The position numbers and the translations under genes were made by a program. A stretch of 64,000 nt of DNA from Streptomyces sp. A3M-1-3. GTDB lineage: Bacteria > Actinomycetota > Actinomycetes > Streptomycetales > Streptomycetaceae. This document shows, one piece after another, positions 1 through 3,415 of this stretch; position 1 is the stretch's first letter, and the number at the start of each line of letters is the position of its first letter. The stretch lies in NCBI RefSeq assembly GCF_024213665.1, contig NZ_JANAVP010000020.1:1-64000 (forward strand). Direction: 5' to 3'. The notes below the pieces were generated by a model. That model saw nothing but the letters and a program-made list of their open reading frames with translations. It did no database searches and was not told the origin of the DNA.

Positions 1-5
1 CCAAC

Positions 6-77
6 ACCGTTCGGGGCGCACGGCTGAGCAGCAGTCTTGGAAACAAGACTCACTCCCGCTCAGTCTCTAGGAACGGT
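6..77 (+). promoter_or_regulatory. Nested-hairpin leader (copy A) of the XRE gene
   Basis: Three nested perfect stems are visible: ACCGTTC (6-12) with GAACGGT (71-77), CTGAGC (24-29) with GCTCAG (58-63), and AGTCTTG-GAAA-CAAGACT (33-50) closed by a GNRA-type tetraloop. The only Shine-Dalgarno-like bases for the GTG at 80 (AGGAA, 69-73) overlap the outer stem, so the fold could control translation. A related element lacking the inner hairpin lies at 1779-1834. A role as an RNA regulator is inference; the sequence shows only the pairing and the duplication. Confidence 0.5.
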
Positions 78-79
78 AC

Positions 80-364
80 GTGGAGTCTCCCGCGGTGGTG
101 GCCGAGCGCGAGCAGATTCGCCTCGCACATGATCTGGGGCAGCTCGTCTACGACCGTCGTATGGCGCTTGGGCTGACGAGTTCCGAGCTGGGGCAGCGGC
201 TCGGAATGTCTGCCGACGAAGTCGAGGCCATCGAGCTGGGTGGGGTTCTGCCGGTCTCCTCCGATCTCCTGGCGAGGCTCGCTGCGGCGCTGGATGTTGC
301 GGTCGACCTGCACGTGGTCCCTGAGGGTCGCAACACGGTGGCTTTCGTCGCACGTGCTGCCTAG
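80..364 (+). CDS. XRE-family helix-turn-helix protein, possible antitoxin
   Basis: A 94-residue protein that is essentially one Cro/C1-type helix-turn-helix domain (about residues 14-72). The recognition region runs through SSELGQRLGMSADEVEAIELG and is followed by a Leu/Ala-rich helix ending LAAALDVAVDLHVVPEG. That ending is common in HigA-like antitoxins and small phage-type repressors. Such proteins bind DNA and often repress their own operon. The start is the GTG at 80, the only codon directly behind AGGAA. A toxin partner, if any, would lie upstream of the window. It could equally be an orphan regulator. Confidence 0.75.
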   Translation: MESPAVVAEREQIRLAHDLGQLVYDRRMALGLTSSELGQRLGMSADEVEAIELGGVLPVSSDLLARLAAALDVAVDLHVVPEGRNTVAFVARAA

Positions 365-375
365 CTGACGGCACG

Positions 376-409
376 CTGCCGGTCCACGGGATGTTCCTTG
401 GACCGGCAG
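376..409 (+). terminator. Hairpin after the XRE gene
   Basis: An 11-bp perfect inverted repeat, CTGCCGGTCCA / TGGACCGGCAG, with a 12-nt loop, lies 12 bp after the XRE stop and before the MFS remnant. There is no T run, as is usual for Streptomyces terminators. Confidence 0.5.
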
Positions 410-434
410 TGGGGCCCTCCAGGAAGATCGGCGG

Positions 435-1576
435 GTGGAAAACGAGCCCGCCGGGGCGTTCCGGCTCATCCGGGCGAACCGGCCGTTCCGCGTGGTGTGG
501 ACCGCCCGCTCGGTTTCCTTCCTCGGCGACTCACTCAGCCTCGTGGCCCTGATGCTGTACGTCGCGGACTCCACCGGGCAGGCCCTGGCGGTGGCGCTGC
601 TGCTCCTCGTCGGCGACTTCGCACCGGCGTTGCTCGGGCCGCTGACGGGCGCGATCACTGACCGGTTCGCCCACAAGCGGGTCATGGTGACCTGTGACCT
701 GTGACCTGTGAGCTGGTGCAGGCAGGGTTGATGGCGTTGATCGCGCTCTGGATGCCTTCGCTGCCCGTACTGCTGGTGCTCGTCGGGCTGCGCGCGATCG
801 CGGGCCAGATCTTCCAGCCCGCCTCGCGCGCCATCGTGCCCGCCCTCGTACGCGACCGTGACCTCGAAGGCGCCAACGCAGCCGTGGGGCTGGGCACCAA
901 CGGTGGCGAGACGCTGGGCCCGCTGGTCGCAGCCCTGCTCCTGCCGCTGCTGGACGTACGCGGTGTGCTCCTTGTCGACGCCGGTACTTTCCTGCTGTCG
1001 GCCGCCCTGCTGGTCATGTTGCCTGCGGCTCGGCCAGCGGCGTCGGCCTCTGACGCGGCCGCGAGGACTACGACGATGTGGAGCGATGCGAAGGACGGGC
1101 TGCGCTACATCGTGACCACTCCGCTGCTGCGGGCGATCGGGCTCGGCTTCTTCGCCGTGGTTGCCTTCAACGCGATCGACGACGTGGCCCTGGTCTTCCT
1201 GGCCAAGGACACCCTGCACGGCGGCGACTCGGCGGTCGGCCTGCTGCTGGCGGCGGTCGGCATCGGGCTGTTCGCCGGGTACGCGCTGCTCGGCGGCAGC
1301 CGGGGGCCGAAGCTGTCGATGACCGTACTGCTGCTGGTGGGCTTCGCGGTGAGCAGTGCGGGCAACCTGCTGACCGGCCTGGCCTGGTCGGTGGCCGCCG
1401 CGTTCGCCGTGCAGGCGACGCGCGACCTCGGCATCGCGGCGATGGATGTGGCCACCAACACCCTGATCCAGCGCACGGTGCCGACGGCTCTCCCTGGGAA
1501 CGAGGGCGGTTTAGCTCGATCGTGTGATGGTCGGCTTCCGGGCTTGCGGCGTCCTGGGCCGTCCGGGTTAACGTGA
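435..1576 (+). pseudogene. Broken MFS transporter (frameshift and 3' truncation)
   Basis: The first 89 codons (435-704) encode the start of an MFS_3-like exporter with two hydrophobic segments and a GAITDRFAHKR loop resembling motif A. The frame then stops, and the protein resumes in another frame from 701 (VTCELVQAG...). The cause is a triplicated 7-bp unit GTGACCT at 687-707; removing two units restores one continuous protein. The second frame carries further membrane segments up to NTLIQRTVPTAL near 1490, after which homology-like sequence ends and unrelated residues run to a stop at 1576. Roughly the last 60-70 residues expected for the family are absent. The GTG at 435 sits 8 bp after AGGAAG. 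Substrate unknown. Confidence 0.8.
687..707 (+). repeat. (GTGACCT)3 tandem heptamer inside the MFS gene
   Basis: Three perfect head-to-tail copies of GTGACCT, followed by a near copy GTGAGCT. One copy gives the in-frame reading VMVTCELVQ; three copies add 14 bp and throw the frame. This is the size expected for slipped-strand mispairing. Confidence 0.85.
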
Positions 1577-2048
1577 TCGTGTGATCTGGGACGCCGGGTA
1601 CGGCGCCGGCGTGCGGGGCCCCTGCTCCACCGGAGTGATGGTTCAGGGCTTCCCCGTCGCCTCTGGCCGTACCGATTTGGCCGGATCGCGCAGGGAACCG
1701 ACCTCCCGGGCCCGGACCACGCACAGGATGCGTGTCGCCGCCCCGGGGTTGAGTACGCCGGGGACCAGTGCGCCCAAGACCGTTCGGGGCGTGCGGCTGA
1801 GCGGGCTCACTCCTGCTCAGTCAAGAGGAACGGTACTGCTGGACCTCACGGCACCGCCGGTGGCCTTTTTTGCGGCGGGTACGGGGGGGCTTGATCGCGA
1901 CCGTGGCAGCGGCGGTCGCCCTGCGCCGGGCTGGGTAGTGACGGGTGGGCGGCGGGCACGCGGCAGCTGGGGGTGGACCGTTCCCTGGCGGCGATCGCCG
2001 AACGGTTCGGGCCAGGTCCGAGTCAGCCGGCGGCGGCATCGTGCTCGC
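1577..2048. other. Non-coding junction region with repeat remnants
   Basis: No convincing gene on either strand. An 11-bp direct repeat GATCGTGTGAT occurs at 1518-1528 and 1575-1585, spanning the MFS truncation point, and the second nested-hairpin copy lies at 1779-1834. The rest, up to the MFS gene that ends at 2049, shows no coding signal I trust. It looks like a scar where several rearrangements have met. Confidence 0.5.
1779..1871 (+). promoter_or_regulatory. Nested-hairpin element (copy B) followed by a T run
   Basis: Repeats the outer stem (ACCGTTC 1779-1785 with GAACGGT 1828-1834) and middle stem (CTGAGC 1797-1802 with GCTCAG 1815-1820) of the copy at 6-77, with matching linkers, but the inner GAAA hairpin is replaced by GGG. 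A short CACC-GCC-GGTG hairpin and six T (1866-1871) follow, like an intrinsic terminator. No gene follows in this orientation. Confidence 0.45.
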
Positions 2049-3239: not shown

Positions 3240-3415
3240 GTCGACCTCCTGGTCTGCCCGAGGTGAGGAAAGTCCGCGCCCAGCATCTCCCTGCTGTTCG
3301 GACTCCGCAAACGCCTCACACGCGGTGTTCCGGCGTCCGCCGCACTGACCCAGACCCTGCTGACGGCCTCCGCCCGCACCGTCCGACCCGGGCCCAGGCC
3401 AAGTACCGCTTCCGC

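What the first reader, a model, noticed from the sequence alone, without database searches (positions are those of the whole stretch)
6..1834. Duplicated nested-hairpin element flanking a small mobile-looking block
The element at 6-77 and its shorter relative at 1779-1834 share the outer ACCGTTC/GAACGGT stem, the CTGAGC/GCTCAG stem and linkers, but copy A has an additional 18-nt GAAA-capped hairpin. In copy A the ribosome site of the XRE gene overlaps the outer stem; in copy B a T-tailed hairpin follows. Shared stems with a variable insert suggest a structured RNA rather than chance. The two copies enclose an XRE gene and a broken exporter, suggesting duplication or element ends.
Basis: partly seen in the sequence, partly recalled or inferred. 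Interest (0 to 1): 0.6.

Follow-up and report, generated by a model that had tools for sequence, protein, structure and literature searches.

The report
Transposon right ends encoding guide-RNA scaffolds
The two hairpin elements are the right ends of two related jumping genes of the IS607/TnpB kind, folded RNA scaffolds that most likely aim a DNA-cutting enzyme, and the second copy belongs to a tiny gene-less relative that has kept the scaffold.

Summary
Copies 6-77 and 1779-1834 are two of 22 confident matches in this Streptomyces genome. They are not a riboswitch, nor the two ends of one element: each is the RIGHT END of a separate IS607-family (TnpA serine recombinase + TnpB) element and, by its fold, the 3' domain of a TnpB guide RNA (reRNA). 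Copy A sits inside the XRE gene: orthologues in 3 other genomes read through GAGG(G/A)|T where copy A stops. Copy B ends a left-truncated ~335 bp MITE at the broken exporter's 3' end. The nested hairpin is half the fold: another covarying helix crosses the outer stem as a pseudoknot, as published for TnpB reRNAs. Right ends stop sharply: T follows GGAACGG in 175 of 179 distinct ends, then variable flank, the predicted guide. MITEs keep ~260 nt of structured RNA with compensatory changes, group apart from TnpB-linked ends and co-occur with tnpB (33 of 37 MITE genomes versus 66 of 258). The kind is known; the notable part is a protein-less lineage that apparently kept a guide-RNA scaffold. No activity was tested.

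The parts
1..76 (+). copy A: right end (last 76 nt) of an IS607/TnpB-type element ('type 3'), cut by the contig start; 3' domain of its predicted reRNA scaffold
   Evidence: 99% identical over 80 nt to C84:275-354 and 100% over 76 nt to the end of C10; the C84 copy is preceded by a TnpB C-terminus, 52% identical over query 398-506; boundary from XRE orthologues
6..77 (+). pseudoknot strands: ACCGTTC 6-12 pairs with GAACGGT 71-77, next to the guide; stem-loop GGCTGAGC 22-29 / GCTCAGTC 58-65; GAAA-capped hairpin AGTCTTG 33-39 / CAAGACT 44-50; GCGCAC 16-21 is the 3' strand of the helix whose 5' strand is off the contig
   Evidence: structure counts on 16 type-3 right ends; the C84 copy carries the missing strand
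78..97 (+). predicted guide of copy A (about 20 nt after the fixed T77; the length is taken from published IS607 systems)
   Evidence: T in 175 of 179 distinct ends, then variable; PMC10711439, PMC11061315; GGGG + window 77-95 has no match in the genome but its own flank at up to 3 mismatches
77..364 (+). XRE/HTH gene, 5'-truncated by copy A; possible restart at GTG 80 with AGGA supplied by the element
   Evidence: HTH_31 E 1.4e-8; orthologues L064-L066 continue upstream
435..1499 (+). MFS exporter pseudogene: two frames (435-704, 701-1576) meeting at a 7-nt tandem repeat (687-714), 3' end missing at the miniature element
1500..1833 (+). copy B: miniature non-autonomous element (MITE), about the first 31 nt of its left end missing; the right part is the reRNA-like region
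   Evidence: seven full-length relatives of 358-365 bp in the same genome
1768..1834 (+). copy B 3' domain: helix GTGCGC 1768-1773 / GCGTGC 1789-1794 (two wobble pairs), pseudoknot 1779-1785 / 1828-1834, stem 1795-1802 / 1815-1822
   Evidence: covariance model match 69.3 bits, pair counts on 69 distinct MITE rows
1835..1854 (+). predicted guide of copy B
   Evidence: as for copy A

Best explanation
Both hairpin elements are the 3' domain of a TnpB right-end RNA (reRNA/omegaRNA) lying at the right end of IS607-family transposons of Streptomyces. Shown here: they end mobile elements at a fixed boundary (GGAACGG|T); related elements with the same right end encode an IS607 serine transposase and a TnpB-like nuclease; the RNA strand covaries as stem-loop + pseudoknot + stem-loop; copy A sits in the XRE gene; copy B belongs to a protein-less MITE lineage that keeps a similar RNA. 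Inferred: the RNA is transcribed across the right end into the flank, TnpB binds it, the flank is the guide, and TnpB cuts the empty target site (flank preceded by a GGGG-type TAM), helping the elements to be retained; MITEs borrow TnpA and TnpB in trans. Copy B has lost its left end and copy A's left part is not assembled, so these two copies may be immobile now.
For: Genome-wide copies. TnpA of the intact element on C41: NCBIfam IS607 transposase 195.6 bits, cut-off 110, Pfam Resolvase. TnpB: guided_TnpB E 6e-11, below its cut-off; borderline Cas12f sequence match E 0.0086; Foldseek top hits AsCas12f, then Cas12g and RuvC, although the model is poor; D277/E338/D415 invariant in 19 rows. Of 190 right-end rows (179 distinct), 100 (96 distinct) have more than 300 aligned residues of tnpB upstream and 34 rows also tnpA. 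Fixed T then variable flank; left junction GGGG 36, AGGG 3 of 39 distinct MITE sites. Interrupted XRE gene. Covariation: type 3, type 2, MITE 3' domain, MITE body, last 263 nt of 14 type-3 elements (19 of 77 pairs with two-sided changes). Architecture as in PMC10711439 sections 25-26 (right-flanking base fixed and part of the scaffold; pseudoknot required).
Against: No transcript or cleavage data. TnpB misses the curated cut-offs, has no Pfam hit, and its model has mean pLDDT 54. No Rfam family matches, RAGATH-18 included. The outer (pseudoknot) stem hardly varies, so covariation does not prove it. In MITEs the crossing helix shows a two-sided change in one cell only and is unpaired at one position in 14 rows. 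The inner stems of type 2 are only 76.9% paired in the register I gave. Some measures do not beat the shuffles clearly: further pair types in type 3 (478 of 500 shuffles as high) and in MITEs (39 of 500); pairs with two-sided change 19 of 500 and 21 of 500. Related rows inflate shuffle controls. Only one insertion site has orthologue proof: the L005 MITE site was not clean (relatives carry 522-739 bp there) and the L008 site could not be read across.
Confidence: 0.9

Rival explanations
1. The conserved fold is only the DNA end recognised by the IS607 transposase (TnpA); it has no RNA role, and the MITEs keep it because they need ends.
For: It sits exactly at the right end, and the MITEs share the left-end motif GGGGT....AACTGCT with TnpA+TnpB elements (25 of 34 rows, one mismatch allowed, some rows being the same place).
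Against: Compensatory changes extend over about 260 nt, far from the end. In 35 MITEs the inner region has 15-nt block conservation of 0.78-0.94, against 0.72-0.82 plus one block of 0.94 in the left 105 nt. The pairing crosses as a pseudoknot and takes in the flanking T.
Confidence: 0.06
2. cis-regulatory RNA (riboswitch or attenuator) of the XRE gene and exporter, as hinted by the first reader.
For: AGGA 69-72 precedes GTG 80 and overlaps the outer stem.
Against: The flanks downstream of the right ends are variable. The three XRE orthologues found lack the element and continue upstream of the insertion point.
Confidence: 0.01
3. Copies A and B are the two ends of one composite element carrying XRE and exporter.
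For: They flank a 1.7 kb block.
Against: Same orientation, both right ends; copy B has its own left part from 1500. The block query matched only itself in the home genome and XRE-sized pieces in 3 of 294 other sampled genomes (E<=1e-20, two candidates scored per genome).
Confidence: 0.02

Closest known systems
IS607 TnpB with reRNA (ISXfa1, PMC10711439; ISFba1 with RAGATH-18, PMC11061315)
   Same: TnpA serine recombinase + TnpB; RNA at the right end running into the flank; fixed right-flanking base inside the scaffold; pseudoknot next to the guide; G-rich motif on the other side of the site (published TAMs 5'-AGGAG or 5'-GAGGG; here GGGG/AGGG at the left junction)
   Different: No Rfam match to RAGATH-18; this TnpB clade shows GVDTNADH at the presumed RuvC-I and no cysteine pairs between E338 and D415; here there is also a protein-less lineage
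ISDra2-type IS200/IS605 TnpB-omegaRNA (mentioned in the passages read of PMC10711439; details recalled)
   Same: pseudoknot between the guide-flanking bases and a stem-loop; guide from the flank
   Different: Y1 transposase and a TTGAT-type site there (recalled); right-flanking base variable there (PMC10711439 section 25)
PATEs and other MITEs of IS200/IS605 (Haloquadratum, PMC3119063, seen only as a search listing)
   Same: short gene-less relatives of tnpB-bearing IS (recalled)
   Different: other IS family; I recall, without a call, that guide RNAs have been noted in some such elements

Membership tests
IS607 family (parent element) | serine-recombinase TnpA | tested here: met
   C41 TnpA NF033518 195.6 bits over cut-off 110, Pfam Resolvase; 34 of 190 right-end rows have tnpA upstream. 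Not visible for copy A itself (contig edge).
IS607 family (parent element) | insertion at a matching dinucleotide without a longer target duplication | tested here: inconclusive
   XRE site GAGG(G/A)|T in 3 orthologues and right junction GGAACGG|T fit, but copy A's left junction is not assembled and no other site has a clean orthologue.
TnpB / Cas12f-like RNA-guided nuclease | RuvC D-E-D triad | tested here: met
   D277, E338, D415 invariant in 19 sequences; their assignment to the triad is inferred
TnpB / Cas12f-like RNA-guided nuclease | curated family score | tested here: not met
   42.2 bits against cut-off 100 for NF040570, 29.8 against 32 for TIGR01766; Pfam none. I therefore write TnpB-like.
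TnpB / Cas12f-like RNA-guided nuclease | C-terminal zinc finger (common, not universal, PMC10711439) | tested here: not met
   no CxxC pairs between E338 and D415
TnpB reRNA / omegaRNA | structured RNA overlapping the tnpB 3' end up to the transposon right end | tested here: met
   263-nt consensus of 14 type-3 elements with 19 of 77 pairs two-sided; MITE query positions 124-372 align to tnpB 3' ends
TnpB reRNA / omegaRNA | pseudoknot with guide-flanking bases | tested here: met
   the helix crossing the outer stem has two-sided changes at 4 of 6 pairs in type 3, 3 of 6 in type 2, 1 of 6 in MITEs; the outer stem is conserved rather than proven
TnpB reRNA / omegaRNA | guide-dependent cleavage next to a TAM | not testable with these tools
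   needs an assay
RAGATH-18 (Rfam) | covariance-model match | tested here: not met
   no match at gathering score in the window or 8 loci; not among the 2 matches at E<=5 in one type-3 right end. That the library holds RAGATH-18 is taken from PMC11061315.

The most novel reading that the evidence does not exclude
The miniature elements are stand-alone guide-RNA transposons: one old lineage that encodes no protein, moves with a borrowed IS607 transposase, and programs a borrowed TnpB with a fresh guide at every new insertion site, so that selection on guide function in trans has held the RNA fold more tightly than the outer left end.
Probability: 0.45. Interest if true: 0.7.

Novelty: new variant of a known kind. 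Interest (0 to 1): 0.45.

Why it matters
It explains a dispersed repeat family of Streptomyces (matches in 90 of 295 sampled genomes, the home genome included) as TnpB guide-RNA elements, gives a covariance model for an RNA that no Rfam family matched, and offers a natural test of whether TnpB acts in trans on gene-less relatives.

Tried and rejected
Riboswitch/attenuator of the XRE gene: not supported by the three orthologues. Known Rfam RNA: none in the window; three sub-threshold matches at 1-2000, among them scr5239 at 19.1 bits against 64; none in eight loci; two chance-level matches in a type-3 end. Composite element: rejected. A second, clean empty site: at the L005 site the flanks are 522-739 bp apart in the 7 of 11 relatives where both aligned; at the L008 site, of 3 relatives only one aligned and only away from the junction. 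In-frame joining at L008 (codons E-E-G|Y-D-H) and at the C41 element is my own reading of printed sequence, with no orthologue proof. Second target for guide A: only its own flank. Promoter/terminator scan of 1-2000: 0 of each. The TnpB model is poor, so the Foldseek result is only supportive. Literature: no paper on guide-RNA-bearing IS607 MITEs, or on IS607 reRNAs of Streptomyces, was recognised in the listings, several of which showed only the best rows; most subscription papers are not held, so this is weak evidence of absence.

Rows dropped: one search left out seed L105 and, before the scan, loci L001 (copy A itself), L012, L018-L048, L063 and L067 as redundant, truncated or chance-level; it gave 193 rows on 192 loci. 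One search dropped 3 of the 193 without a recognisable end; the 190 left hold 179 distinct ends. One search kept unique, complete rows only (91 TnpB-linked, 63 MITE); one search aligned 61 of the 63 (A2, not used for counts). One search was given 77 MITE sources and matched 76; the counts use its 69 distinct rows. A6 has 72 type-2 rows; six of other lengths were left out (L050, L166, L181, L182, L212, L228). A5 was not used for counts because type-2 rows aligned poorly to the type-3 model. One search kept 39 distinct left junctions of 80 MITE rows plus two lone left ends. One search kept 35 MITEs with both ends and length 340-400. One search leaves out seven proteins tried (L212 and L110 have a stop in frame; L161, L179, L050, L098, L107 were dropped with them). 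The 37 MITE genomes are my pick from the table (one piece covering at least 290 of 374 query bases; two candidates were scored per genome there, five). MITE rows were found with a MITE query, so MITEs of independent origin would be missed.

Full report
WHAT IS THERE. The two hairpin elements exist as described. A search of the home genome (7.13 Mb, 94 contigs; the window is the first 64 kb of contig C19, so window base 1 is a contig end) with copy A gives 29 rows, 17 of them (16 places) at E<=0.004; copy B's element gives 19 at E<=0.001. A covariance model later gave 27 matches, 22 at E<1e-4. Many copies lie at or very near contig ends (C19, C10, C51 twice, C5, C34, C13, C46, C55, C72 twice), as expected when repeats break an assembly. 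The genus is Streptomyces: genome G173 contig C19 has the length and hit position of NZ_JAPEMV010000001.1, Streptomyces sp. NBC_00249, and G173 is listed as 'same genus'.

TWO DIFFERENT ELEMENTS. Aligning the copies shows three types. Type 1, to which copy B belongs, is 358-365 bp in the seven full copies of this genome measured, with a constant left end (GGGGTCGTCAGCTGC...) and right end (...GGAACGG); copy B lacks about the first 31 nt and starts at 1500. Type 3, to which copy A belongs (C84:275 99%, C10 end 100%), and type 2 (C33, C41, C5; C12 is a diverged relative) are about 75% identical to each other and carry a protein frame that runs into the right end. Type-1 positions 124-372 align with the tnpB 3' end and right end of such elements. 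Type 1 is therefore a MITE: a left end plus the RNA-coding right part.

PARENT PROTEINS. On C41 a 192-aa protein matches the NCBIfam IS607 transposase model (195.6 bits, cut-off 110) and Pfam Resolvase. It overlaps a frame (P0001, 510 aa as used) which matches guided_TnpB only weakly (42.2 bits, cut-off 100), has no Pfam family, has a borderline Cas12f sequence match (E 0.0086), and whose poor model (mean pLDDT 54) nevertheless retrieves AsCas12f first, then Cas12g and RuvC. D277, E338 and D415 are invariant in 19 relatives, and no cysteine pairs stand between the last two. I call it TnpB-like. A scan of reference genomes kept the best 80 of 155 loci: mostly Streptomyces, also Kitasatospora, Actinacidiphila, Nonomuraea, Streptosporangium, Actinomadura and Actinopolymorpha.

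BOUNDARIES. Over 190 right-end rows (179 distinct) the base after GGAACGG is T in 186 (175) and C in 4, and the next bases are variable. Over 39 distinct MITE left junctions the element is preceded by or begins with GGGG (36) or AGGG (3); 25 of 34 TnpA-linked rows show the same left motif at the expected distance, one mismatch allowed. Copy A interrupts the XRE gene: in 3 of 294 other sampled genomes orthologues read GCC GAG GGG TAC, GCC GAG GGG TGC and GCC GAG GGA TAT, encoding AEG(Y/C), through the point where the window changes from GGAACGG to TACGTGGAG. So the element ends at 76, T77 is host DNA, the XRE start codon proposed at 80 is a restart at best, and the Shine-Dalgarno-like AGGA comes from the transposon.

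THE FOLD. The nested hairpin is incomplete. In 16 type-3 ends a helix just 5' of the outer stem's first strand pairs with bases inside the outer stem, e.g. GTGTGC/GCACAC, GAATGC/GCATTC; 4 of its 6 pairs change on both sides. In 72 type-2 ends 3 of 6 do; in MITEs 1 of 6, with 94.8% of cells paired. It crosses the outer stem, giving a pseudoknot: stem-loop 1, its apical loop paired with the last bases before the guide, and a second stem-loop between. The outer stem itself is nearly invariant, so it is conserved but not proven by covariation. Cells paired, two-sided cells and the covariation score beat all 500 shuffles in the three sets; the number of further pair types and of pairs with two-sided change do not do so in type 3 and MITEs (478 and 19, 39 and 21 of 500 shuffles as high), and related rows inflate such counts. 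The inner stems of type 2 are only 76.9% paired in the register I gave. PMC10711439 (sections 25 and 26 and passages read) reports for IS607 TnpB a fixed right-flanking nucleotide that belongs to the scaffold and a pseudoknot needed for activity; PMC11061315 (abstract and sections 5, 6, 10 read) reports IS607 reRNAs and TAMs 5'-AGGAG or 5'-GAGGG. The features match, though no Rfam family, RAGATH-18 included, was hit.

THE MITE LINEAGE. A MITE query matches in 90 of 295 sampled genomes, home genome included; some of these matches are right ends of tnpB elements. Of 37 genomes with one piece covering at least 290 of the 374 query bases, 33 also hold a TnpB at E<=1e-30, against 66 of the other 258 (Fisher p 7e-14; the 37 were picked by me from the table, and shared phylogeny is not corrected for). 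In 35 full MITEs the inner RNA part is mostly better conserved than the left-end part (15-nt blocks 0.78-0.94 against 0.72-0.82 with one block of 0.94). A consensus fold of their last ~266 nt has 73 pairs, 10 with two-sided changes; the 51 pairs outside the 3' domain are 97.8% paired with 24 two-sided cells against 8.5 +/- 2.2 in shuffles (the structure came from the same alignment, which favours it). The last 263 nt of 14 type-3 elements give a fold of broadly similar layout with 19 of 77 two-sided pairs. On a tree of 73 right-hand regions the 35 MITEs are one side of a 100/100 branch (the bootstrap had not settled), so compensatory changes among them arose after the lineage separated, within the limits of a sample drawn with a MITE query.

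MECHANISM. Shown: transposon right ends, IS607-type relatives, a covarying pseudoknotted RNA, a fixed boundary, a variable flank. Inferred from published IS607 and IS605 systems: TnpB binds the RNA, the ~20 nt after T77 and T1834 are guides, the enzyme cuts the empty site, and MITEs use TnpA and TnpB in trans. Copy B has lost its left end and is probably no longer mobile, but its 3' RNA domain scores like those of intact copies (69.3 bits).

VERDICT. The kind is known; the protein-less guide-RNA lineage is the part worth a follow-up.

Noticed in passing
window 687-714: A 7-nt tandem repeat (GTGACCT) coincides with the frameshift between the two halves of the MFS exporter ORF (435-704 and 701-1576).
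   Followed up: partly
G000:C72 (L253) 1-74 and 3299-3373, ends of C13, C46, C55, C5: Near-identical type-2 right ends at several contig ends: probably further collapsed copies of a TnpB element; C72 is a 3.4 kb contig with one such end at each side, in opposite orientation.
   Followed up: partly
L005 site, C10:86320: The stretch between the conserved flanks is 522-739 bp in 7 relatives but 80-116 bp here without the MITE, so a deletion or gene loss may have gone with the insertion.
   Followed up: no
MITE left part, element positions 46-60 and 106-120 (L005 copy): A motif (GATCGTGTGAT) occurs twice; the first copy is the best conserved block of the left part (0.94): possible TnpA binding sites or promoter.
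   Followed up: no
G000:C22:44734-44824 (L257): A diverged right end (41.5 bits) with no TnpB or TnpA match in the 3.5 kb fetched around it: perhaps an older relic.
   Followed up: partly
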